The notes under the pieces were generated by a model. That model ran no database searches. It was not told the origin of the DNA and saw only the letters and a program-made list of their open reading frames with translations. From positions 1 to 64,000 of the forward strand of contig NZ_JACJSZ010000008.1 in NCBI RefSeq assembly GCF_014698445.1: DNA of 64,000 nucleotides. The letters run 5' to 3'. Shown here piece after piece: positions 8,801 to 19,963 of this stretch. The first letter of the stretch is position 1; each line of letters begins with the position of its first letter. This DNA comes from Microcystis elabens FACHB-917. Lineage in GTDB: Bacteria; Cyanobacteriota; Cyanobacteriia; PCC-6307; Cyanobiaceae. The position numbers were made by a program, and so were the translations under genes.

Positions 8801-10425
8801 AGTATGCAAAGCATCCATTCTGCTGTAAGCGATCCAATATTTCATTCCTCAAGCTCGCTTCTGAGAATATTGAGCCAAGCTTCAATGCTGATGAGTCAGC
8901 GGATTCGGAGCGAATTGGCCGTCAGCTAATGAAGCGCTCTCACATCGTTCACCCAGAGCTCGAGGCTCTTTGTCTTCAGCTTGACTGCAAACCAAAAGTC
9001 GTCATGGAGAGCAATGAATTTCAAGGCATGCTTGCAAACAACGCTCTTGGTTTTGCTAGCTCTCTTGTGTCATTTGCTGTCGGATGTTCATTAGGTCGCT
9101 GGGACATCAGTTATGCGCTGGGAAAGCGTATGCCACCTAAGATGCCCGACCCATTTGCCATGTTGTCCCTATGCCCACCTGGTCAGTTGCAGAATACGCA
9201 GGGTCGGCCTGCACGGCCTGAAGATTTGCATGATGCTTACCCCATAGATATTCCCTGGGACGGCATTCTTGTCAATGATCCCCAGAGCCTAAGGGACATC
9301 CAACAAAAAGCTCGGGAGGTCATCGAGTTCATTTGGAATGCCAATGGGAGGGCAAGTGCTTCTAGTATCGAGCAAGAGTTGTGCCATATACTGGGATTCA
9401 AGTCCCTTCGCGACTACTTCTCCAGGCCGAGTCTCTTCTTTGCTGATCATCTAAAGCGCTACTCGAAGAGTCGTCGTCAAGCGCCCATCTACTGGCAACT
9501 CTCTGCAGGAAATGGCAACTATTCGGCCTGGCTCTACTACCACCGCTTCACGAAAGATACGCTCTACCGAGTGCTACGAGATTTCGTCGAGCCTCGTATT
9601 CAGAAGGCCGAGCGAGAGCAGTTCGAACTTGAATCCCAGGGGGTACTGTCAGGTGGTGCAGCTTCGCGACTGCATGATGCACAGAACCTGATACAGGATC
9701 TGCGGCTACTCAAAAGCGAGCTGGATCTCGTCGCTCCGCTCTGGAATCCCAATCTCAATGATGGCGTGATCATCAACCACGCCATCCTCTGGCGCATCAC
9801 GCCCTACGCCCCCTGGCAGAAGAAGTGCAAGGAGTGTTGGGACAAGCTGGTGAAGGGTGATTACGACTGGGCTCATCTCGCCTTCCATCTCTGGCCCGAG
9901 CGGGTGATTCCCAAGTGCACCACCGATCGCAGCCTGGCCATCGCCCATGGCTTGGAGGAGCGGCTCTGGCAGGAAACCAACAACGGCAACTGGCTGCCGC
10001 GGCAGCTCTCCGACGCGGATCTGCAGGCCCTCGTCGCCGAGCACAGCAATCCTGCGGTCAAGAGTGCCCTGGAGAGATTCCTGGCTGCACCTCCGCCAGT
10101 AGCCCCAACCCGCACCCGTGCCAGCCGCAGCACCCGCGCCAGTGGTAGCTCCACGCCACGGCGTGCCCGTGGCAGCGCTGCAGTGGTGGATGCAGAGGCC
10201 ACCCGCCAGGTGCTGCTGGCCCTCACCGCCGCGCCATCCGATGGTCTGGCCAAGACGCAGATTGCCGATCTGATCGGCGTGGAGGCCAGCGCCCTCACCG
10301 CCGTGGTCAAGCAGCTCAAGGAGAGCGGGCAGATCGATCAGCTGGGTGAACGCCGCGGCGCCCGCTACGTGCTCAGTGAGCAGGGGCGGGCTGCAGTCGC
10401 TAGCCAGGCAGGGGAGGAAGACTGA
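5806..10425 (+). CDS. pglX: BREX adenine-specific DNA methyltransferase PglX
   Basis: This is a 1539-residue N6-adenine methyltransferase that marks host DNA for BREX. The SAM-binding motif I LDPACGSMHFG lies at about residue 315, and the catalytic NPPF motif (in DAIVMNPPFGE) at about 585. Target-recognition and helical regions follow. An extra tail after about residue 1425 has an Arg/Ser/Thr-rich linker and a winged-helix-like domain (SDGLAKTQIADLIGV, then LKESGQIDQLGERRGARYVLS) that ordinary PglX proteins do not, as far as I know, carry. The stretch from about 6.8 to 9.7 kb is visibly AT-richer, with different codon choice from both ends, suggesting recombination. It starts 14 bases after brxC, and its stop overlaps the next ATG. 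Confidence 0.93.
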   Translation: MEKEQRNRLQKATQDARKLLEEEFRRQLLQTYDIDVDRVRWAEEAGAHLQAEQRLIREKLVAWIEHKEAQINDPKEALLLALREMAFTALNRFVALKLMEARELVRPCVSGGLESAGFLEFTAVAQGLLADQESSYRLYLETIFEDVSRELRALFDPRDPASLLWPKRTALLELLEILNRPELAELWIEDETLGWVYQYFNGDAERKKMREESSAPRNSRELAVRNQFFTPRYVVEFLTDNTLGRIWYEMRQGNTGLKDQCRYLVRRPKEVWLQPGEEPPAQPDADETLSQEELLRQPVYIPHRSLKDPREIRMLDPACGSMHFGIYAFDLYLDIYAEAWELAQELGEQSQQPEAFASFMNYTASFADKAAFLRETPRLILQHNIHGIDIDARATQIARLTLWLRAQRAWQAQKLPVADRPPINRCNVVCAEPMPGERELLIDFIDEQFPESERAVLQRLLEAVFEKMQLAGEAGSVLNIEEEIRDVIDSAQRDWTHSAIQQIEMFNESESEKNGATLGSSDADTPRAITDEFWGNIEERIYTALFAYAERAEDITGFQRRLFADDTAVGFAFVHLQRIRFDAIVMNPPFGECTKLTYLQSMPAQFGSSRQIASLFISRSIYQLAPGGMLGILAPRLLMFLDTLEAWRCHLLDSHSITLCADLGYGVLDAVVEPAAFVLSGKSLLSTFIRLLSAIDKKTALLSAIAAPAGNKDVIPLANDWNLVPGHRIAYWAPNRWLELFANVKLERFARVSKGLESGDDERFLRLSIEVPSSEIGLRWWRYPKGGDYQPAAGNDELVVDYSLGNFARRATDADLYGSAGVTYTKRTTSFLSFRALPKGCIFSPGGPGIIPTRDINPYLLLSYLNSRPIGALVELSVGSGDSAVRGSAARDYNTGIIRRLPYLINNLSAEKAMFVEHALMTRVHHVQKYQLSVDELSPAYVGFTSEEFRESLIASELNRLRSRLADACLVLEHDWECDKIWREILGFELADERLLEEEYAKHPFCCKRSNISFLKLASENIEPSFNADESADSERIGRQLMKRSHIVHPELEALCLQLDCKPKVVMESNEFQGMLANNALGFASSLVSFAVGCSLGRWDISYALGKRMPPKMPDPFAMLSLCPPGQLQNTQGRPARPEDLHDAYPIDIPWDGILVNDPQSLRDIQQKAREVIEFIWNANGRASASSIEQELCHILGFKSLRDYFSRPSLFFADHLKRYSKSRRQAPIYWQLSAGNGNYSAWLYYHRFTKDTLYRVLRDFVEPRIQKAEREQFELESQGVLSGGAASRLHDAQNLIQDLRLLKSELDLVAPLWNPNLNDGVIINHAILWRITPYAPWQKKCKECWDKLVKGDYDWAHLAFHLWPERVIPKCTTDRSLAIAHGLEERLWQETNNGNWLPRQLSDADLQALVAEHSNPAVKSALERFLAAPPPVAPTRTRASRSTRASGSSTPRRARGSAAVVDAEATRQVLLALTAAPSDGLAKTQIADLIGVEASALTAVVKQLKESGQIDQLGERRGARYVLSEQGRAAVASQAGEED

Positions 10426-12350
10426 TGTCGGCCCCGGGGGCTGAATTTGATGTGACGCCCTTTCTCCACCAGGACGAAGGGCAGCACTTCGATCGAAAGT
10501 CGCTGTTCCACGGTCCCCCGGATGCCAAGAGACAACGTGAGCGAAGAGCCGTGCGCGACGAAGTGGCGCGTTATGCGGCGGCCTTCGCCAATGCCGAAGG
10601 CGGCGTGCTGATCCTCGGCATTGAAGACGACCACACAGTCAGCGGCCATCAACTTCCACCTGCTGCGTTGCAGACGCTCCTCGCCGTACCCCAGGCCCGC
10701 TGCCAACCACCCCTGCCACCGGGATTCGTCGTGCCCCTCGACGGCCACGAGCTGGTCGTGTTCGACGTACCCAGCACGGATGGCCCGGTCCAGGTGACTG
10801 GCGATGGCTTTCCGCTGCGCATGGGTGATCAGACCGTGGACAGCAGCGAAAGCAAGATCCGTGCCCTCAAGTTGCAGGGCCTGGTCGAAAGCCATGAAAG
10901 CCGGCCTTCCGCCCTGAAACTCGCAGACCTCAACAGCGATCTGCTCGCACAGGCACGCCGGGGCGCAGGCCTGGAATCCCTCAGCGATGCCGACTACCTG
11001 CTCAAGCGCAATCTGGCCGATCGCCGTGGATCAGAGCTGATTCTGCGGCAAGCCGCTGAGCTGCTGTTTGCCCGCCTGGGGCCAGAGCACCCCAACGCCG
11101 GCGTGCGGGTGTTCCGAGTGGTGGGTACGGAGCGACGCCTTGGTGCCACCCACAACGTTGAGGAGCGCCCGCGCATCGAGGGCAATCTGCCGGAGGTGTG
11201 GCAGGAGGCCGTCGGCGTGATCGGTGGCCTGATGCGCCAGCCCTCCCGCCTGGTGGGCAACCGCTTTCAAGCCGTGAGCGAGTACCCCCGCTTCTCCTGG
11301 CAGGAGGCCTTGCTCAATGCCATCGCCCACCGCGACTACAGCGTGCAGGGCAACTGCATCGAGGTGTGGCTCTTCGACGACCGGATGGAAGTCGTGAGCC
11401 CCGGCGGGCTGCTGCCCGAGCTCAACCTGCAGGAGCTGCTCAGCCGCAAGCGCGTGCACTGCAGCCGCAACCCACGGTTGATGCGCACCCTGGTGGATCT
11501 GGGCCTCACCCGCGACCAGGGCGAGGGGATCCCGCGCATGTTTGCCGAGATGGAAGATGCCTTCCTGCCAGCGCCTCGGATTGAGCCCACCGCCAGAAAC
11601 GTCACTGTGGTGCTGGGCAACACCACCACCCTCACCGAGGCGGACCGCACCTTCGTGGAGCGCCTCGCTGCCGAAGAACTCAGCCAGGAGGAGTTCCGCG
11701 CCCTGCTCCAGGCCCACCGCCACACCCAGGTGGACAACGCCAGCCTGCGGCAGCTGATCGGCCTCGACACCCTCGGTGCCAGTCAGGTCCTGCGACGCCT
11801 CAGGGATCGCTCCATGCTGGAGCTGCACCGAGCTGGCTCGCAGAGCTACTACACCCTCGGGCCGGCGCTGCTGGCTGGCGATCGCCCCGATCAGGGAAAA
11901 CTGGCCCTCGATCGAGGGGAGCTGGCAGCGGATCGAGGGGGGTTCCCCGCAGATCGAGGTGGGTTCAGCCGCGATCGAGGGGGGCTGGAGCAGGATCGAG
12001 GGGGGTTCAGCCGCGATCGAGGGGGGCTCGAACCGGATCGAGGGGGGCTGCTGGATCCTGAGCTCCACCAGGTACTCGCCTCTCTTGGCACTCGTCCTCG
12101 CAAGGAGAAGCTGCGGCAGGCGATCGGCCAGCTCTGCTCAGAGCAGTGGCGCTCTGTCGCCTGGCTGGCTGCATTGCTCAAGCTCAAGCCCCGGAATCTG
12201 TCGGATCGGCATCTGAGTCCAATGGTGAAAGACGGGCTGCTGGAACGGCGTTTTCCAGATGTCCCCAGCCACCCCGAGCAGGCCTATCGCTCCATGCCAC
12301 CACCAGTCCACGCGGCTGCCGCCAGCCCGGAGCAGGAGGACAACGCATGA
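10425..12350 (+). CDS. AlbA_2/Schlafen-type ATP-binding protein with heptad repeats
   Basis: This is a 641-residue protein overlapping pglX by TGATG. An N-terminal AlbA_2 domain shows QHFDRKSLF (about 18-26) and FANAEGGVLILGIEDD (about 51-66). A HATPase_c_4-like region follows with ALLNAIAHRDY and VVSPGGLLPE (about 295-330), then LTRDQGEGIPRMFAEM, then a winged-helix region. Residues about 495-540 are seven tandem 7-residue units of the DRGG(F/L)xx type. The C-terminal 100 residues resemble another DNA-binding domain. Proteins of this architecture are often annotated as RecG-like or ATP-binding transcriptional regulators and occur in BREX and other defence loci. Role inferred: regulator of the BREX operon or an accessory effector. 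A frameshifted relative lies at 18.3-20.0 kb. Confidence 0.8.
   Translation: MSAPGAEFDVTPFLHQDEGQHFDRKSLFHGPPDAKRQRERRAVRDEVARYAAAFANAEGGVLILGIEDDHTVSGHQLPPAALQTLLAVPQARCQPPLPPGFVVPLDGHELVVFDVPSTDGPVQVTGDGFPLRMGDQTVDSSESKIRALKLQGLVESHESRPSALKLADLNSDLLAQARRGAGLESLSDADYLLKRNLADRRGSELILRQAAELLFARLGPEHPNAGVRVFRVVGTERRLGATHNVEERPRIEGNLPEVWQEAVGVIGGLMRQPSRLVGNRFQAVSEYPRFSWQEALLNAIAHRDYSVQGNCIEVWLFDDRMEVVSPGGLLPELNLQELLSRKRVHCSRNPRLMRTLVDLGLTRDQGEGIPRMFAEMEDAFLPAPRIEPTARNVTVVLGNTTTLTEADRTFVERLAAEELSQEEFRALLQAHRHTQVDNASLRQLIGLDTLGASQVLRRLRDRSMLELHRAGSQSYYTLGPALLAGDRPDQGKLALDRGELAADRGGFPADRGGFSRDRGGLEQDRGGFSRDRGGLEPDRGGLLDPELHQVLASLGTRPRKEKLRQAIGQLCSEQWRSVAWLAALLKLKPRNLSDRHLSPMVKDGLLERRFPDVPSHPEQAYRSMPPPVHAAAASPEQEDNA
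11910..12043 (+). repeat. Seven 21-bp in-frame repeats (GATCGAGG core)
   Basis: The octamer GATCGAGG recurs at 11910, 11931, 11952, 11973, 11994, 12015 and 12036, an exact 21-bp period. Each unit encodes seven residues with a DRGG or DRGE core, so unit gain or loss would keep the reading frame. Flanking bases vary between copies, and several copies extend to GCGATCGAGG, close to the cyanobacterial HIP1 octamer. This looks like a variable-length coding tandem repeat. Confidence 0.9.
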
Positions 12351-13588
12351 TCTCCCTGATCGAAGCCCTCAACTACAGGTCGCTGCGCTACGTGCGCCAG
12401 CCCCTCGCTCCCTTTCAGATCCTGATCGGGCCCAATGGCAGCGGCAAAACCACCCTGCTCGAGGTGCCCAGCTTTCTGTCCCAGCTCATTGAGTTGGGGT
12501 TGGAGCTTGCCATGGGTGCTGATGATCGACTCCCGATTCCCCTGCTTGCCACAGATCCACGTCAGTTGCTCTGGAAGCAGCAGGGGCAGCTGTTTGAACT
12601 CGCTGTTGAGTGTCCCATCCCGGCTACGCAACAGGTCTGTCGCTATGAACTGGCGATTGATGCCATCGCCAGCAGCATTGTTGCCGAAAATCTGCTGGTG
12701 ATCCCCCGGGGCGATGACAAGCCCCGGCCGCCGTTGGATCGGTTCCCTTCACCCCGCACCATCCCCTCAACGATCCTGGTGAATCCCGATGGCTCGCTGC
12801 CCACAGGCTGGACGAAGGTGATCGGTCGCCACCAGCCAGCCAGGGCAACATTCTCTGCCGAAACCTCCAACTGGCAGACCACTCGCAAGATCCAGGCCGG
12901 TCGCACAGCCCTGGCCAGCCTCCCGGACGACCCTGAGCGCTTTCCCGTGGCCTGCTGGTTCAGGGACCGCCTGATCGGCCAGATGCATCGGCTGGTGCTC
13001 TCCGCTGAGCACATGCGTCTGCCATGCTCGTTTGCACGCCAGTGGGGCTTTCGGGCGGATGGCTCCAACCTGCCCTGGGTGCTACATCGCCTGCAGCAAA
13101 ATCCTGCGCGCTTTGCCCAGTGGCTGGCCCATCTTCAGGAAGCGCTGCCTGAATTCCGCAGTTTCTCCACCGTGCTGCGCGAGGAGGACCGCCACCGTTA
13201 TCTCACCGCCCGTGCCACAGAAGACGTGGCTCTGCCCTCCTGGTTGCTTTCCGACGGCACGCTGCGCCTGCTGGCGCTCACGTTGCTGGCCTATGTGGAG
13301 GATCTCAACGGCGGCTCCTACCTGATTGAAGAACCCGAGAACGGCATCCATCCCAAGGCGATGGAATCGGTGTTTCAGTCGCTCTCCTCTGTCTGCAACG
13401 CGCAGATTTTCTGTGCCACCCACTCGCCTGCGCTGCTCTGCCTCGCCCGTCCAGAGCAGCTGCTCTGCTTTGCCAAGACGGCAGAGGGTGCAACCGATGT
13501 GATCCAGGGGGATCAGCATCCGGCGCTTCGCGACTGGCAGCGCACGGTCGACCTGGAAACCCTGTTTGCATCGGGGGTGCTGGGATGA
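12347..13588 (+). CDS. AAA family ATPase (RecF/OLD-like, AAA_21)
   Basis: This is a 413-residue ATPase. The chosen ATG overlaps the stop of the AlbA gene (ATGA); longer in-frame starts would run deep into that gene. The Walker A motif GPNGSGKT lies near residues 28-35. Near the C-terminus come a signature-like LLSDGTLRLLALTLL, the Walker B YLIEEPENGIHP, and an ATHSPALL switch segment. Such SMC-like single-domain ATPases are common in defence loci and are usually followed by a TOPRIM-like or small partner protein. Here the following frame appears truncated. It shares the BREX operon, so an accessory anti-phage role is inferred. Confidence 0.82.
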   Translation: MISLIEALNYRSLRYVRQPLAPFQILIGPNGSGKTTLLEVPSFLSQLIELGLELAMGADDRLPIPLLATDPRQLLWKQQGQLFELAVECPIPATQQVCRYELAIDAIASSIVAENLLVIPRGDDKPRPPLDRFPSPRTIPSTILVNPDGSLPTGWTKVIGRHQPARATFSAETSNWQTTRKIQAGRTALASLPDDPERFPVACWFRDRLIGQMHRLVLSAEHMRLPCSFARQWGFRADGSNLPWVLHRLQQNPARFAQWLAHLQEALPEFRSFSTVLREEDRHRYLTARATEDVALPSWLLSDGTLRLLALTLLAYVEDLNGGSYLIEEPENGIHPKAMESVFQSLSSVCNAQIFCATHSPALLCLARPEQLLCFAKTAEGATDVIQGDQHPALRDWQRTVDLETLFASGVLG

Positions 13589-13797
13589 CCAGCGTCCGCG
13601 CCGATCTCAGGGTGGTTGTTGCCGGCTCATCCGAGGTGGATCGGGCCCTCGGTTGGCGGTCAGCAACGCTCCCACCATGGTGGAAGGTGCGTCATGACCA
13701 TGGCCAGCTCGCTGACGCCCGCGTTGCTGTCGCACTGATGCCATCCCCGGCCAACAGGCGCTTGGCGAGCGATCATCAACCTACTAGAGGAAAGCGC
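13585..13797 (+). pseudogene. Possible remnant of the ATPase partner gene
   Basis: An ATG at 13585 overlaps the ATPase stop (ATGA), as coupled partner genes do. The frame encodes about 71 residues starting with a hydrophobic beta-strand-like LRVVVAGSSE, reminiscent of the start of the small TOPRIM-like partners of such ATPases, then loses recognisable character. It continues in frame into the next gene, but that gene has its own ribosome binding site and ATG at 13798. I read this as the 5' end of a partner gene cut off by insertion of the AT-richer cassette. It could instead be a genuine N-terminal extension of the next protein. Confidence 0.35.
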
Positions 13798-14226
13798 ATG
13801 AGACCTCGACAAAACCATGGCTCCAAGAAAAAACTTGCTGACCTGAGCGATTGGCCACCACACCAACTGAATTCATTGGCCCTGAAGCTGAACGACAGTG
13901 GCAATCCACTGCACAAGCTGAATCCAGGAGATTACAACCTGACTCCACCATGTGCGGGCGGCAGACCTGGAAAGACCCTCTGCGACTCGGTGAAGATTTT
14001 CACAAAGGCAGAGGCGCTGAGTCTACTTCGTGAAGGATGCCGCAAGGGACTCATTGATCGCAATCTTGAAGATGGCTGGCCGAAAAGGATTTGGGCAGTT
14101 CATCAAGGAGTGGTTCTTGATGCGCAGCACGACAAAAGCCCTCCAGGCTCCTACCATGGCTACCCGTTGCAGGCCGACGATAACTTCAAGAGGTATATCT
14201 TAAATCGGTGGAATGGGCGGTTATGA
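13798..14226 (+). CDS. Unrecognised 142-aa protein, cassette gene 1
   Basis: I do not recognise this family. The ATG at 13798 is preceded by AGAGGAAA at a normal ribosome-binding distance and is preferred over the in-frame start at 13585. The protein begins basic (RPRQNHGSKKK) and ends with a compact motif-rich stretch: KRIWAVHQGVVLDAQ, then YHGYPLQADDNF, then a terminal RW. The repeated aromatic/His/Asp residues could be a nuclease or RNA-binding active site, but that is speculation. Its stop overlaps the ATG of the ImmA/IrrE-like gene, so the two are probably a coupled pair. Base composition is lower in GC than neighbouring BREX genes, which suggests separate acquisition. Confidence 0.65.
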   Translation: MRPRQNHGSKKKLADLSDWPPHQLNSLALKLNDSGNPLHKLNPGDYNLTPPCAGGRPGKTLCDSVKIFTKAEALSLLREGCRKGLIDRNLEDGWPKRIWAVHQGVVLDAQHDKSPPGSYHGYPLQADDNFKRYILNRWNGRL

Positions 14227-15581
14227 ACCAGAGCTTGATTCAGATTGGAGCGTGGGAACGCATTGAGCCCCTACCCATTGAGCAGGCGGTCACCTGCACG
14301 CGGATTCGGCTGAGCCTGGACGGCATCTGTATCACTGAACATGAAGACAACTTTTCGCATACCGTCCGCGAAGACGTGCTGTTGTCAGCCTATCCCTTGG
14401 CCCTGTGGTTTGCGACAAACTGGTGGCGCCTTCTTTATGAAACCAGGCCAACAATTGGCAAAGTACCTACCGACTGGCGTATTTCCCATGAGATACCATC
14501 AGCCAATGAAGGCTACATATGGCCTGTCGTCGTGTTCCAGAGCGAAGGCCCCTCAATTGCCTTGACGGTGCCCACCCAGGCAGGGGCCAGAAATGATTCA
14601 TTACGCTATCTAAATACCCATAAGAAACCTTTTTATATATGGCGTAGTCAGCTCAAGAAGAGTCTTTGTGACTTTATCAATGAGACCGTGTCTCGCCTGG
14701 AGGCAATGAATGTAGGCGAAACTGATCTTTCACGACTTTGGGTTGAAGTGCAGGACGAAGCACGCAATCCAGTCGAGAAATCTTACCGAATCATTGAGGC
14801 CTGCCTCGGTTACGATCCTGATGAAGCACCTTCCTTTTTGGTGGAACAACTTCTGGACATCAGGGAGCAAGCAGGATTCGATACAATACTTGAATTCGCA
14901 CCCACGCTTTTCGGAAATCCTGCACATCAATCACCAAGCATCCAGGATCTCGTCTCCTCTGCTTTCACTACCCCTGGCGTATTTGGCAGGCCAAATCTGC
15001 CAAGATTGGCGGAAATTCCCAACGTCACTGCATTTTTAGCTCCTTGGGAGCAGGCACGTAGAGCAGCTTCAGACCTACGCAAGACACTGTCCATAGGAAT
15101 TGAGAAGCTCACTACTAACACGCTGTGCGAACTTCTGGGTGTTAATCTTGATGCGCTGATTTCATCCGAGAGCCCATTCGGAGATATTCCCGTAAGCATT
15201 GGGATACGACGGCCTGATGGTAATACCAGATATTATTTAAGATCGATCAGGCGAGCAGATCATTCAGTGACGCAGAAGAGTCTACGGTTTCAGCTTGCCC
15301 GCTTGATTGGCGATGAGCTTATCCGGTCAGCGAGTGATCAGGGGTGGCTCGCATGCACGGAATCGCATACCTGGCGACAAGCATTTCAAAGGGCATTTGC
15401 GGCCGAGATTCTATGCCCGCCCGACATTGTTCAGGAAAGATTCAGGTCTCCCACGTTTGTACCGCCAGACGAGGTCATTGAAGACGTGGCTTGTCAATAT
15501 GAAGTGAGCGAGATGGTGGTAAGGAATCATCTTCAGAATCTTCCAGGCGCACCAGATGCGCTTACGGCGGTGGAGAAATGA
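14223..15581 (+). CDS. ImmA/IrrE-like protein lacking the HExxH motif, cassette gene 2
   Basis: This is a 452-residue protein starting at the ATG that overlaps the previous stop (14223-14226). The last 100 residues look like the end of an ImmA/IrrE metallopeptidase domain: LARLIGDELI (about 358) where HExxH would be expected, then AFAAEILCPPDIV (about 392), and DVACQYEVSEMVVRNHL. The zinc-binding histidines are not visible, so peptidase activity is doubtful. The N-terminal 300 residues are unrecognised. ImmA/IrrE proteins usually act on repressors or pair with small toxins and phage regulators. The coupling here suggests an antitoxin, sensor or activator for the 142-aa protein. The gene is AT-richer than its surroundings and overlaps pglZ by ATGA. 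Confidence 0.6.
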   Translation: MNQSLIQIGAWERIEPLPIEQAVTCTRIRLSLDGICITEHEDNFSHTVREDVLLSAYPLALWFATNWWRLLYETRPTIGKVPTDWRISHEIPSANEGYIWPVVVFQSEGPSIALTVPTQAGARNDSLRYLNTHKKPFYIWRSQLKKSLCDFINETVSRLEAMNVGETDLSRLWVEVQDEARNPVEKSYRIIEACLGYDPDEAPSFLVEQLLDIREQAGFDTILEFAPTLFGNPAHQSPSIQDLVSSAFTTPGVFGRPNLPRLAEIPNVTAFLAPWEQARRAASDLRKTLSIGIEKLTTNTLCELLGVNLDALISSESPFGDIPVSIGIRRPDGNTRYYLRSIRRADHSVTQKSLRFQLARLIGDELIRSASDQGWLACTESHTWRQAFQRAFAAEILCPPDIVQERFRSPTFVPPDEVIEDVACQYEVSEMVVRNHLQNLPGAPDALTAVEK

Positions 15582-18286
15582 GCATCACTAAGATGAATGT
15601 TAATCGCAGTCTCCCCAACAAACTGCAGGCCCGCTTCTGCCAGGAGCTCTCCCGCCAGCTCAGCCTTCACCGCGTGGTGCTGCTGTTCGACCCGGCAGAG
15701 CAGCTGCGCTCGCTGCTGGATGCCCTGGCCACCAGCCAACCCAGTGATGGAGTGCCCGGTGCGCTCAACCTCAGAGAGCTGCAGGCCCAGTGGGTGGTCG
15801 CTGGCACCAGTCTGTTTGCGCTGCGCCACCAGCTCGAGCCCCTCGTTTGCGCCGATCTGCCGGATCCGCTGCTCGTCTACCTGCCCCAGCGGCAGGAGGC
15901 CGATGGCCGGGCCACCCTGCTGGAGCTGATCCGCGCCGGCACGGTGTTTGAGGCGCAGCTGGTGAACCGGGCCCGCGTCTACCTGCGTGAGGTGATGGAG
16001 CCCGAGAAGGTGGAGCAGCTTCTCAAGCGGCCCGACCTCACCTACCGCGACATCGCCATCGCCCTGGAGCAAGCCGGCGAGGGTGGATTCAGCCAGCTCA
16101 AGGCCCTGTTCCGCCAGCAGCTCGGCGGCATGGGGAGCCCGCCGGAAAATGCCGAGCTGGCTCGGCTGTGGCTGACATCCGATCAGTTCGATGCCGGCAT
16201 CAACGCCAAGGGCCTGCAGAGCGAACTGCAGGATCTGCTCCACAGCCGCTGGGGCCTCGGCTTTCCAGCAGACGCCACCCTGGCCGACTGGCGCCAACGG
16301 GCCCAGCGGGCCCTGCTGCTGCATGAGTTCCTCCACGACTGGCACGGCGATGAGCTCACCGCCTTCGCCAAGCAATCCCTGCCGGTGGGCAAGGCCGCAG
16401 AAGAGAACGTCCTCACCGATGTGAAGGCCCTGCGCCGCAACCACGCCAGTGCCTACATCGCCATCGCCGCCCGGGTGGAAGAGGAGCTGGGCTTGCGCGA
16501 GCTGATCAACCACGAACGCCCGGGCGTGCTCGGCGCGATCGACACCTTCCCCTGCGAAGAGCAGTTCCTGCTGCGCAGCGTCGATGCCTTCCTGGCCAAG
16601 GGGGAAGCCGCCAAATCCCAGGAGCTGGTGCAGGCCCGCCAGGGCAGCTTCTGGCTGGTGGGCCAGCCCACCGATCCCACCCAGTCGCAGCGGCGGCTGC
16701 AGTGGGACCTGGCCCGAACGGCTGCTGCCCTCGGCCTGGCTCTCGATCAGGCAGAAGCCCAGCTGCCCAGGCCAACGGCTCCGGTTGCCGATTGGTTGGC
16801 CTACCAGGCCGATGCGGCCCACCACGTGGATGGGCTGCAGCGGCGGATGGAGCAGCAGGTGGCCGACCTGAGCGCATCTGCTGTGGAGGTCGCCCAGGGC
16901 CTGGAACATCTGCGCAACCGCTACGAGCAACTGCTCGACAAGCAGACCCGGCGTTTCACCGATGCTCTGCAGCAAGCGGGCTGGTTGATACCCGGCGCCA
17001 TGCCCCAGACCCGCATCTGGGCCGAGCGGGTGCAGCCGGGCTCTGGCCGGGTGGTGGTGTTCTGGGTGGATGCCCTGCGCTACGAGATGGGCGCCTCCCT
17101 GCATGAGCGTTTCAGCGGCTGGAGCCGCGAGCAGCTCAGCGACCTCAGGCTCGAGATCGCCCAGGCGGCGCTGCCCTCGATCACCCCAGTGGGCATGGCA
17201 GCCCTGCTGCCCGGCGCCGAACGCGGCTTTGCCGTCACCGAAGACGATGGCGATCCTTGCTCGGTGGTCGATGGCGTGCCCGTGGGTTGGAGCAACGACA
17301 AGTCCAAACGCCTCGCCCACCTGCAGCAACGCGTGCCTGCGGCCGTTGTGCTCAACCTGGTGGAGGTGATCCGCAGCAAGGAAGCGGCGCTGCTGGAGAA
17401 ACTCGCCGGCAATGGCCCGGTGGTGATCACCAGCATCGGCATCGATGAGGCTGGCGAGCGCGACAGCGACGAACGCCTCGCCAATGTGCGCGCCGACATG
17501 CAGCGCGAGCTCGACACCACCGAAGAAGCCGTGCGCCGCCTGGCGGCTCTATCGCTGGACCATCGGCTGGAGCGCTTCGTGATCACCGCCGATCACGGCT
17601 TCCTGCATCTGCCCCTGGGCCGCGAGCCGGCGATGCGAATCCCAGCCCCTGCTGGCAAAACCTTCAAGCTGGAGTGCCGCTGCTGGCTGGGCCACCCCTC
17701 AGCCGTTCAGGAGCCCAGCATCGAGATCCCACCAACAGAACTCGGCTATGGCAGCCATGGCCTCTCGGTGGTGGTGCCCCGCTCAGCCGGTGTGTTCAAG
17801 GCCGGCGGCAGCCTCTGCTATCACCACGGCGGCACCAGCCCTCAGGAGGTGCTGATCCCGCTGCTCAGCTTCCGCTGCAACCCCGCTGGCGCATCGTCGG
17901 ACACCGACGCCACCGCTGCCAAGGGCAAACGCGCCAAGCAACCGGCCTGGCCTGGAGCCCTGCCCGAGAAGATCACCAACCGCATCCTGATGCTGCCGAT
18001 CGAGCTTCCCGTCACCCTGCTCAACCAGGGCGAGAGCCGCCAGGTGGTGCTGGGCGCCTACGACAGCAAGAGCGACGAGCTGGTCGCCACCCCCATCCAG
18101 GCCATCGGCGCTGAGCTCGACACCGGCACCAACCGCCTCACCCTCACCCCCGGCCAGGCCGCCACCATCGGCCTGATGCTCCCCGCCGAGGTGAGCGCCA
18201 GGAAGCTCTACCTGGAGCTCCGCGACGCTGCGACGGATCTGGTGCTGCACAAGAGCCCGGAGCTGCCGGTGGATCTGATCGGGTGA
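15578..18286 (+). CDS. pglZ: BREX alkaline-phosphatase-fold protein PglZ
   Basis: This is a 902-residue protein whose ATG overlaps the preceding stop. The PglZ phosphatase-like core shows VVFWVDALRYEMGAS at about residues 491-505 (metal-binding Asp) and ITADHGFLHLP at about 667-677 (the DHG metal site), as in alkaline phosphatase superfamily members. The N-terminal half is helical, and a beta-rich C-terminal region follows an Ala/Lys linker. PglZ is the signature gene of BREX, and it works with PglX and BrxC in methylation and exclusion of phage DNA. GC content is high again here, contrasting with the cassette just upstream. The stop overlaps the next gene as TGATG. Confidence 0.93.
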   Translation: MSITKMNVNRSLPNKLQARFCQELSRQLSLHRVVLLFDPAEQLRSLLDALATSQPSDGVPGALNLRELQAQWVVAGTSLFALRHQLEPLVCADLPDPLLVYLPQRQEADGRATLLELIRAGTVFEAQLVNRARVYLREVMEPEKVEQLLKRPDLTYRDIAIALEQAGEGGFSQLKALFRQQLGGMGSPPENAELARLWLTSDQFDAGINAKGLQSELQDLLHSRWGLGFPADATLADWRQRAQRALLLHEFLHDWHGDELTAFAKQSLPVGKAAEENVLTDVKALRRNHASAYIAIAARVEEELGLRELINHERPGVLGAIDTFPCEEQFLLRSVDAFLAKGEAAKSQELVQARQGSFWLVGQPTDPTQSQRRLQWDLARTAAALGLALDQAEAQLPRPTAPVADWLAYQADAAHHVDGLQRRMEQQVADLSASAVEVAQGLEHLRNRYEQLLDKQTRRFTDALQQAGWLIPGAMPQTRIWAERVQPGSGRVVVFWVDALRYEMGASLHERFSGWSREQLSDLRLEIAQAALPSITPVGMAALLPGAERGFAVTEDDGDPCSVVDGVPVGWSNDKSKRLAHLQQRVPAAVVLNLVEVIRSKEAALLEKLAGNGPVVITSIGIDEAGERDSDERLANVRADMQRELDTTEEAVRRLAALSLDHRLERFVITADHGFLHLPLGREPAMRIPAPAGKTFKLECRCWLGHPSAVQEPSIEIPPTELGYGSHGLSVVVPRSAGVFKAGGSLCYHHGGTSPQEVLIPLLSFRCNPAGASSDTDATAAKGKRAKQPAWPGALPEKITNRILMLPIELPVTLLNQGESRQVVLGAYDSKSDELVATPIQAIGAELDTGTNRLTLTPGQAATIGLMLPAEVSARKLYLELRDAATDLVLHKSPELPVDLIG

Positions 18287-19963
18287 TGGCTATGGAGCAA
18301 GAGCGCCTCATCCCCACAGCTGAAAGCCTCACAGTCGAGTTCAAGTCCGATCACAAGGGGCCCCTTGGCGACAAAGACCTGGTGCTGGCTGCGGTGTGCT
18401 TGGCCAACAACCAGGGGGGCGATCTGTACCTAGGAGTGGAGGACGATGGCACCGTGACCGGGCTGCACTCCACCCGCGATCGCAACCGTGACCTGGCAGC
18501 GGTGATGGCCTCCCGCACCAACCCCCCCGCTGCCGGTCAGCGCCACTCGTCTGGAGGAATCGGGAAAGGAGCTGATCTGGTTCCAGGTGCCCCCTGTTCA
18601 GGGCACGGTCTTCAGCAGCGATGGCAAGGCCTTGGTGCGAGCTCTTGATGCCAAGGGCAAGCCCACCTGCCGTCCGATGGCCGGTGTCGATGTGCTGCGC
18701 CGTGCCAATCAACAGCGCGAAATCGATTGGTCGGGCCTGCCAGCGGCTGGGGCCACCCTTGCCGACCTCAACCCTGCCGAGCGGGATCGGTTGCGTGCCG
18801 CCGTGAAGCGCCACAAAGGGGAGGAATCACTGCTGGAGCTGGGCGATGAAGAGCTCGACCTGGCCCTGGGTCTGATCACCATGGGGACCGGTGGATCGCT
18901 GGTGCCGACCCACACCGGTCTGCTGTTGCTGGGCCAGGTGGCATCGCTGAGGCGCTTCATCCCTGGCCATGAAGTCGCCTTTCAGGTGCTCCAGGGCACC
19001 GACGTGCGCGTCAACCACTTTCACCGCAGCCCGCTGCTGGCCGTCGTCGAAGACCTCAGCCAACGGCTGGACCCTTTTGTGCAAGAAGAGGAACTGGAGG
19101 TCGGGATGTTTCGTGTTCCGATTCCCAACCTGCCTGCCAGCTGCTTTCGGGAGGCCTTTATCAACGCCCTTGCCCATCGCGATTACACCGCTCTGGCCGC
19201 GGTGCACGTGCAGTGGCAACTCGGCGACAACCTTGTGATCAGCAACCCCGGTGGATTCGTGCGTGGGGTTTCCATCGACAATCTGCTCACGGCGCCGCCG
19301 CGATCGCGCAACCCAGTGCTGGCTGATGCGCTCAAGCGCATCGGTCTGGCCGAGCGCACAGGGCGGGGGGTGGATCGCATCTTTGAAGGCCTGCTGGAAA
19401 CCGGTCGGCCTGCACCCAGCTACGCCCGCTCCAGCGACCACGACATCGTGGTTGAGCTGAGCACCCGCCCCGCCAACCTCAAGCTGGTGGCCCTCTGGCA
19501 GGACTACCAACAACGGCACGGGCAGGGCATGGGGCTCCTCAGCCTCCTGGTACTCCACCTGCTGCACGACCAACGCAAGCTCACGGTGGAGCAGCTGAGT
19601 GAGCAACTGAAACGCGATCCCACCCTGGTCAGACGCCACGTCGAGCAACTGCTGGAGTCAGGCCTGGTGGCCCCCCAGGGGCAGGGCAGGGGTCGCGCTT
19701 ACACCCTCTCCCAACGCGTTTACGCGGCCTTCGACCGTGAGGACGCCTACCAGTTCCAGGCCACGCTCCGGCCGGAGGAGATCGACCGGCGGATCCTCGA
19801 CCTGGCCACAGGCCTGGAAAGACTGCGGCGGAAGGATGTGATGGAAGCCCTCAGCGGTCTCGACGTGAGGCAGGCCAGCTACGCCCTCAAGCGCCTCTGC
19901 ATTCAGGGGAGACTGATCCCGTTCGGCAGCGGCAAGGGGAGGCACTACCAGCTCCCTCCCTAG
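18286..19963 (+). pseudogene. Second AlbA/HATPase protein, frameshifted in a C7 run
   Basis: The first frame (from ATG 18286) encodes an AlbA_2 domain start: SLTVEFKSDHKG, then GGDLYLGVEDDGTVTG. At the run of seven Cs at 18522-18528 the frame leaves this product. Removing one C restores a continuous reading of about 558 residues. Translation after the shift continues with ALAHRDY, VISNPGGFVRG, and RTGRGVDRIFEGLLE (HATPase_c_4-like), then two winged-helix segments. The reading frame downstream is intact to the TAG at 19961. The damage may be a real inactivating indel, a phase-variable run, programmed slippage, or a sequencing error. It is a relative of the 641-aa protein upstream but lacks the heptad repeats. 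Confidence 0.8.

What the first reader, a model, noticed from the sequence alone, without database searches (positions are those of the whole stretch)
13798..15581. Two-gene cassette of a 142-aa unknown protein and a degenerate ImmA/IrrE-like protein inside BREX
Seen: coupled genes (ATGA overlap) with lower GC than the flanking ATPase and pglZ; the first has a clean ribosome binding site and a motif-rich C-terminus (YHGYPLQADDNF, then RW); the second keeps an ImmA/IrrE-like tail but not HExxH. Known: ImmA/IrrE proteins pair with toxins and repressors. Inference: an undescribed toxin-partner or sensor-effector module riding in the BREX operon.
Basis: partly seen in the sequence, partly recalled or inferred. 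Interest (0 to 1): 0.75.

Follow-up and report, generated by a model that had tools for sequence, protein, structure and literature searches.

The report
Toxin–antitoxin-like gene pair inside BREX
Two overlapping genes inside a cyanobacterial anti-phage (BREX) operon belong to a widespread, undescribed gene pair that looks like a poison-and-antidote switch, in which the antidote carries a disabled copy of a DNA-damage-sensing protease.

Summary
Gene 1 (13798-14226) and gene 2 (14223-15581) are real, overlapping, low-GC genes inside a type 1 BREX operon. The gene 2 protein is a remote ImmA/IrrE homologue whose zinc site is lost in the whole family.

The pair is an obligate module of its own, found in many phyla. 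In 80 genome loci and one viral contig, gene 1, or remains of it, precedes gene 2 wherever the contig allows a check, with one exception. Most copies lie outside BREX; the BREX copies form one clade.

Four indirect lines make gene 1 the toxin and gene 2 the antitoxin. Gene 1 decays beside intact gene 2 in 12 loci, the reverse in one. Gene 1 divergence tracks only the N-terminal domain of gene 2, whose model resembles CdiI immunity proteins. Weak fold matches of gene 1 are mostly RelE/HigB/ParE/CdiA toxins. In Rhizobium etli a gene 2 homologue fused to a TumA-like domain pairs with a TumE toxin.

The closest known system is VapBC52, whose IrrE-type antitoxin cuts itself on ssDNA; this one cannot do so by that chemistry. 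Toxicity, neutralisation and phage protection are untested. Class: new variant of a type II toxin-antitoxin system.

The parts
13798..14226 (+). gene 1, 142 aa: proposed toxin. Family-invariant residues (58 sequences) G35, H39, K59, L61, C62, D63, G80, P95, W99, Y119, P123; H120 in 57 of 58
   Evidence: ORF; homologues align from residue 1; dN/dS 0.10-0.14; no Pfam, NCBIfam or PADLOC match above noise
14223..15581 (+). gene 2, 452 aa: proposed antitoxin; N-terminal Whirly/CdiI-like domain plus C-terminal zinc-less ImmA/IrrE (CapP-like) domain with HTH tail
   Evidence: ORF; AlphaFold2 pLDDT 90 and VIA matches; hhalign to M78 proteins E 3e-6
14223..14226 (+). ATGA overlap of gene 1 and gene 2 (translational coupling)
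   Evidence: sequence; overlap or abutment in 59 of 63 loci with full-length neighbours
13786..13794 (+). Shine-Dalgarno-like AGAGGAAAG before gene 1
   Evidence: sequence
14223..14717 (+). gene 2 residues 1-165: domain whose divergence tracks gene 1; proposed toxin-binding domain
   Evidence: VIA: CdiI of B. dolosa Z 6.0, CdiI of E. cloacae Z 5.3, Whirly and Pur-alpha Z 4-5; partial Mantel 0.557, p 0.001
15015..15578 (+). gene 2 residues 265-452: ImmA/IrrE/CapP-like domain without zinc site
   Evidence: VIA: CapP 7t5t Z 10.9, PprI/IrrE Z 9.1-9.3; hhalign
15300..15314 (+). degenerate HExxH: R360-L-I-G-D364
   Evidence: R360 in 65 of 65 homologues, D364 in 48; R360 and D364 align with the two His of true M78 proteins
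15378..15380 (+). Q386 at the place of the third zinc ligand (Glu), invariant in 65 of 65
13585..13797 (+). deletion remnant of a MAD4 gene (not part of gene 1)
   Evidence: intact MAD4 in L020 (NF047734, 193 bits, cut-off 160) compared with window, L018 and L019
12347..13588 (+). upstream MAD3-like ATPase, neighbour, not part of the pair
   Evidence: NF047739, 425 bits, cut-off 420; dN/dS 0.36-0.37 against L018/L019, higher than the pair
15578..18286 (+). pglZ, BREX core gene, overlaps gene 2 by ATGA
   Evidence: PADLOC PglZ 4.5e-135

Best explanation
Genes 1 and 2 form a two-gene, translationally coupled toxin-antitoxin module that has settled in the accessory slot of a type 1 BREX operon. 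Gene 1 makes a small toxin, probably an RNase of the RelE/CdiA-CT (BECR) kind that would stop translation. Gene 2 makes a large antitoxin. Its N-terminal Whirly/CdiI-like domain binds and blocks gene 1. Its C-terminal ImmA/IrrE (CapP/VapB52-like) domain has lost zinc and cannot cut proteins by the IrrE mechanism, so it probably serves as a DNA-binding or ligand-sensing regulatory domain. When gene 2 is lost, inactivated or conformationally switched, for instance when the main defence fails, gene 1 is freed and arrests the cell as a backup. Shown by computation: the pairing, the coupling, the lost zinc site, the IrrE fold, the asymmetric decay, the co-variation with the N-domain and the TumE-linked homologue. 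Inferred: toxicity, neutralisation, RNase activity, the trigger and phage defence.
For: Obligate pairing and coupling in 81 loci and in 388 cyanobacterial genomes. Asymmetric decay, 12 against 1. Gene 1 divergence tracks gene 2 residues 1-165, and not the C-terminus once that is controlled for. Fold matches: gene 1 to BECR toxins, weak; gene 2 N-domain to CdiI and C-domain to CapP/IrrE. A gene 2 homologue fused to a TumA-like domain beside a TumE toxin; TumE-TumA is a tested toxin-antitoxin system (PMC10584680). VapBC52 shows that an IrrE-domain protein can be an antitoxin (PMC13273310). Presence on plasmids and patchy spread. BREX loci elsewhere carry backup RNase effectors (PMC12839542).
Against: No toxicity or binding was tested. 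The fold match of gene 1 is weak (best Z 4.5, no Foldseek E below 0.3) and no BECR catalytic set was identified. Loci were ranked by gene 2 similarity, which favours intact gene 2, and some breaks may be assembly errors. Some co-variation could come from linked inheritance. The TumE-linked case is a single locus.
Confidence: 0.72

Rival explanations
1. Gene 2 is the toxin or effector (as COG2856 proteins were once predicted to be) and gene 1 is its antitoxin or substrate.
For: COG2856 was proposed as the toxin of COG2856-Xre pairs (PMC2701414). Gene 1 is the smaller partner.
Against: The zinc site is gone in all 65 members. Gene 1 is lost or broken beside intact gene 2 in 12 loci and only once the reverse; loss of an antitoxin beside a live toxin should be rare. 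A gene 2 homologue is fused to a TumA-like domain beside a TumE toxin.
Confidence: 0.1
2. Gene 1 and gene 2 form a stable sensor-effector defence complex and not a classical addiction module; gene 2 recognises a phage signal (for example ssDNA through the Whirly/IrrE folds) and switches gene 1 on.
For: Gene 2 resembles CapP and PprI, which respond to ssDNA (abstract of PMC10904395; PMC13273310). Some copies lie in or beside BREX, Dpt or OloA defence genes.
Against: No ligand was tested. Many copies lie next to ordinary genes. This shades into the best explanation.
Confidence: 0.13
3. A BREX-specific subunit or regulator needed for BREX methylation or exclusion.
For: In-frame overlap with pglZ and purifying selection equal to PglZ.
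Against: The five BREX-resident copies (window, L018, L019, L020, L072) are one clade and nearly all other relatives are outside BREX. Sister BREX operons lack the pair; in G041 pglX and pglZ are 18 bp apart.
Confidence: 0.05

Closest known systems
VapBC52 toxin-antitoxin system of Mycobacterium tuberculosis (PMC13273310)
   Same: Antitoxin with an IrrE/CapP-like peptidase domain and HTH, linked to an N-terminal domain needed for toxin binding; small toxin partner
   Different: VapB52 keeps HExxH and cuts itself on ssDNA; gene 2 has lost all zinc ligands. Its toxin is a PIN RNase, not gene 1, and its N-terminal domain is helical, not Whirly/CdiI-like
ImmA/IrrE (COG2856, Peptidase_M78) with Xre repressors; CapP-CapH; PprI-DdrO
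   Same: Fold and HTH tail of the gene 2 C-terminal domain
   Different: No zinc site, an added N-terminal domain, and a gene 1 partner in place of an Xre repressor
CdiA-CT/CdiI contact-dependent inhibition toxin-immunity pairs
   Same: Best fold matches of gene 1 and of the gene 2 N-domain are to CDI members: CdiA-CT of C. taiwanensis and CdiI proteins
   Different: Gene 1 is a stand-alone small protein with no delivery part seen; Z scores are low; no sequence similarity found
TumE-TumA toxin-antitoxin systems (PMC10584680)
   Same: A gene 2 homologue in R. etli is fused to a TumA-like domain beside TumE
   Different: Gene 1 is not related to TumE by profile
Backup nuclease effectors in BREX loci (PMC12839542)
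   Same: Accessory effector genes within the core BREX operon; this window also has a Schlafen-type gene and a MAD3-like ATPase
   Different: The text of that survey does not mention ImmA, IrrE or BECR proteins

Membership tests
ImmA/IrrE (Peptidase_M78) | M78/IrrE fold | tested here: met
   CapP Z 10.9 (161 aligned, 3.4 A), PprI/IrrE Z 9.1-9.3; hhalign E 3e-6, probability 88%; Tistrella member passes the Pfam cut-off, 29 against 22 bits; the window protein itself has no Pfam match
ImmA/IrrE (Peptidase_M78) | HExxH plus Glu zinc site (active metallopeptidase) | tested here: not met
   R360, mostly F/L at the Glu position, mostly D364, and invariant Q386 in 65 members. So it is a relative of the family and not an active M78 peptidase
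Type II toxin-antitoxin system | tightly linked, coupled two-gene operon | tested here: met
   59 of 63 loci overlap or abut
Type II toxin-antitoxin system | partners occur together; patchy, mobile distribution | tested here: met
   plasmids
Type II toxin-antitoxin system | toxin may be lost while antitoxin is kept, rarely the reverse | tested here: met
   12 against 1 (binomial p 6e-7 under length-proportional breakage), with a ranking bias towards intact gene 2
Type II toxin-antitoxin system | one protein toxic, the other neutralises it by binding | not testable with these tools
   needs expression tests
BECR (Barnase/EndoU/Colicin/RelE) toxin, gene 1 | BECR fold | tested here: inconclusive
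   most rows of the VIA list are RelE/HigB/ParE/CdiA toxins, but best Z 4.5 (65 aligned, 3.1 A); Foldseek E not below 0.3
BECR (Barnase/EndoU/Colicin/RelE) toxin, gene 1 | RNase activity and catalytic residues | not testable with these tools
   conserved H39, K59, H120 and Y119 are only candidates
CdiI-type immunity domain, gene 2 N-terminus | shared fold | tested here: inconclusive
   Z 6.0 over 122 residues and Z 5.3 over 114; Whirly and Pur-alpha proteins Z 4-5
VapB52-type antitoxin | IrrE domain with zinc site and ssDNA-triggered self-cleavage | tested here: not met
   zinc ligands absent; cleavage itself not testable here
BREX core component | regular presence in BREX operons and BREX presence at the gene's loci | tested here: not met
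   BREX genes close to the window's found at one of 81 retrieved loci (L072) plus the window's relatives L018-L020; pair absent from sister BREX operons

The most novel reading that the evidence does not exclude
A broad antitoxin family built on a dead ImmA/IrrE protease that keeps its sensing fold but releases its toxin without proteolysis. It can take different toxins (gene 1 or TumE) and serves as a backup suicide switch when housed in BREX.
Probability: 0.3. Interest if true: 0.82.

Novelty: new variant of a known kind. Interest (0 to 1): 0.63.

Why it matters
It would add an undescribed, widespread toxin-antitoxin family whose toxin has no known domain and whose antitoxin is a pseudo-protease related to CapP, PprI and VapB52, proteins tied to DNA damage and phage sensing. 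The conserved loss of the zinc site asks how such a domain signals without cutting, which a few mutants could test. It also shows a variable slot between pglX and pglZ where BREX operons swap backup effectors.

Tried and rejected
(1) Reading gene 1 as a 213-aa protein from 13585: rejected, the extra part is a MAD4 remnant. (2) Single-sequence searches of viral and genome contigs with gene 2 found nothing; an alignment of distant plasmid copies did. (3) Pfam, NCBIfam and PADLOC: no family for either window protein (the weak DruF2 match of gene 1, E 0.027, is taken as noise). (4) Sequence search of solved structures with both profiles: only chance matches. (5) Viral fold library: no significant match. 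(6) Gene 1 against TumE by profile: no relation. (7) A recurring third gene in the neighbourhood: none found. (8) A first MAD3 dN/dS of 0.85 was an artefact of an indel and an upstream overlap; the codon-aligned value is 0.36. (9) A link to phages: no match among phage records and one viral contig. (10) The literature searches gave no earlier description of the pair; the held library lacks most subscription papers.

Full report
What is there. Gene 1 (13798-14226, 142 aa) and gene 2 (14223-15581, 452 aa) overlap by ATGA, and gene 2 overlaps pglZ the same way. Their GC (51.7% and 50.5%) is well below that of the neighbours. The operon is a BREX of the BrxA-BrxB-BrxC-PglX-PglZ-BrxL kind, with a Schlafen/HATPase gene and a MAD3-like ATPase between pglX and gene 1. 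The frame upstream of gene 1 is open to 13585. That stretch is the deletion remnant of MAD4, the partner of MAD3: a relative, L020, has an intact MAD4 there (193 bits, cut-off 160), and a similar deletion is seen in L019. Compared with two near relatives, dN/dS is 0.10-0.14 for gene 1 and 0.13-0.14 for gene 2, like PglZ (0.14-0.16), while MAD3, without MAD4, stands at 0.36-0.37. Both genes are therefore real and kept.

A module of its own. Neither window protein matches Pfam, NCBIfam or PADLOC above noise. A search with gene 2 in plasmids found distant pairs in Massilia, Rhizobium, Sphingomonas, Allorhizobium, Tistrella and Agrobacterium, each with gene 1 directly upstream. An alignment of these found 409 relatives in genome contigs, of which the best 80 were kept, plus one viral contig. 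Of these 81 loci, 62 have both genes intact, 12 have a broken, reduced or missing gene 1 beside an intact gene 2, one (L077) has a broken gene 2 beside an intact gene 1, one (L032) has gene 1 cut near the contig edge, and five lack room to tell. Gene 1 is missing without trace only in L065. In 59 of 63 loci with full-length neighbours the genes overlap or abut, most often by 8 or 4 bases. In 388 cyanobacterial genomes drawn without regard to the pair, both occur together in nine (one with a broken gene 1); the singles are fragments or one weak match.

Place in BREX. Among the 81 retrieved loci, BREX genes close to the window's were found only at Synechococcus lacustris L072, besides the window's relatives L018, L019 and L020. 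BrxD and BrxHI were each matched by one protein in a pooled scan of neighbours, which does not name the locus. The BREX copies form one supported clade of five (96/94). In sister BREX operons the space between pglX and pglZ is empty (18 bp, G041), or holds an AlbA/HATPase pair (G019) or a Schlafen gene (G516); in G032 pglX is followed by MAD3-MAD4-gene 1-gene 2. So the pair is one of several exchangeable accessories. A 2026 survey describes backup effectors in BREX, including PIN, HEPN, Schlafen and OLD types, and does not mention ImmA, IrrE or BECR (PMC12839542). Outside BREX, neighbours include dptFGH and an OloA gene, but also catalase, a permease and other ordinary genes, with no recurring third gene.

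Gene 2. The AlphaFold2 model is good (pLDDT 90). Residues 265-452 match CapP (Z 10.9) and PprI/IrrE (Z 9.1-9.3), and the family profile matches true M78 proteins of related genomes (E 3e-6). In that alignment the two zinc histidines fall on R360 and D364, the catalytic Glu on a mostly hydrophobic position and the third ligand on Q386. R360 and Q386 are invariant in 65 members, and no member has the HExxH motif. It is thus a fixed pseudo-protease, with the caveat that the scan pattern RAFA[AQR][ESA][LFI]L[CA]P may favour this branch. Residues 1-165 match two CdiI immunity proteins (Z 6.0 and 5.3) and the Whirly/Pur-alpha fold (Z 4-5); at these values the match is only suggestive.

Gene 1. The AlphaFold2 model is fair (pLDDT 83), with low confidence in the most conserved loop. 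Foldseek gives no significant match. The second-look list is led by CdiA-CT of Cupriavidus taiwanensis (Z 4.5, 65 residues, 3.1 A) and consists mostly of RelE, HigB, ParE and CdiA toxins. This points to a BECR-type RNase but does not prove it; such toxins are often not recognised by sequence (PMC9086364).

Who is the toxin. First, gene 1 decays beside intact gene 2 in 12 loci and the reverse occurs once, although gene 2 is three times longer (p 6e-7 if breaks scale with length). The list was ranked by gene 2 similarity and some breaks may be assembly errors, so this probably overstates the asymmetry. Second, the divergence of gene 1 across 50 loci follows gene 2 residues 1-165 (partial Mantel 0.557, p 0.001) and not residues 265-452 once the N-domain is controlled for (0.06, p 0.22). 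The correlation is not highest in the residues nearest to gene 1, which argues against simple physical linkage. Third, in R. etli a gene 2 homologue (hhalign E 7e-19, residues 58-444) is fused to a TumA-like winged helix and follows a TumE toxin gene (29 bits, cut-off 23.4). TumE-TumA is an experimentally shown toxin-antitoxin family that inhibits translation (PMC10584680). This is one locus.

Mechanism and nearest kin. The nearest described system is VapBC52: its antitoxin has an IrrE/CapP-like domain, ssDNA triggers self-cleavage and loss of the toxin-binding domain, and the toxin helps against phage (PMC13273310). Gene 2 has a comparable layout, an N-terminal domain proposed to bind the toxin plus an IrrE-like domain, but cannot use that chemistry. 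I propose that gene 2 holds gene 1 through its N-domain and that the IrrE-like domain binds DNA or a ligand, so that gene 1 is released by shape change or by loss of gene 2. COG2856 proteins were earlier predicted as toxins of Xre pairs (PMC2701414); the data here make gene 2 the antitoxin.

Verdict. The pair is a new variant of the type II toxin-antitoxin kind, and BREX is one of its homes and not its function. Toxicity, neutralisation, RNase activity and phage defence remain to be tested.

Noticed in passing
window 13585-13797; L019 14958-15105; L020 1194-1826: MAD4 is deleted to a remnant downstream of the MAD3-like ATPase in the window and L019, but intact in L020; MAD3 in the MAD4-less genomes evolves faster (dN/dS 0.36-0.46 among them against 0.23-0.27 to L020).
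   Followed up: partly
L018 4670-5450 and 7350-7400: By inspection, a Phd/PIN-type toxin-antitoxin pair sits between MAD3 and gene 1 in this relative, and the end of the PIN gene is repeated just after gene 2, suggesting repeat-mediated shuffling in the slot.
   Followed up: no
L133, L134, L135, L072, window 10425-15578: The pglX-pglZ interval of this cyanobacterial BREX is a variable slot with different accessory genes in different genomes, empty in one.
   Followed up: yes
L010 1295-11275: Massilia sp. H6 plasmid carries dptFGH (phosphorothioation-dependent restriction) directly upstream of the gene 1-gene 2 pair.
   Followed up: no
L099 14958-16860: A second, much diverged gene 1/gene 2-like pair lies about 5 kb downstream of the first in Castellaniella caeni.
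   Followed up: no
L015 8001-8591; NC_015854.1 3107-3607: Acidithiobacillus caldus plasmids carry a stand-alone copy of the gene 2 N-terminal domain without gene 1 or the IrrE-like part; in pTcM1 it is next to an N-6 DNA methylase gene.
   Followed up: no
window 18283-18648 and 18587-19963: An AlbA/Schlafen piece and an HATPase-wHTH protein lie in two overlapping frames between pglZ and brxL; in relatives the same genes lie before pglZ.
   Followed up: partly
window 13894-13896 (residue 33 of gene 1): The window copy has Asp where 57 of 58 homologues have Tyr, and near relatives L018 and L019 keep Tyr; the window toxin may be weakened.
   Followed up: no
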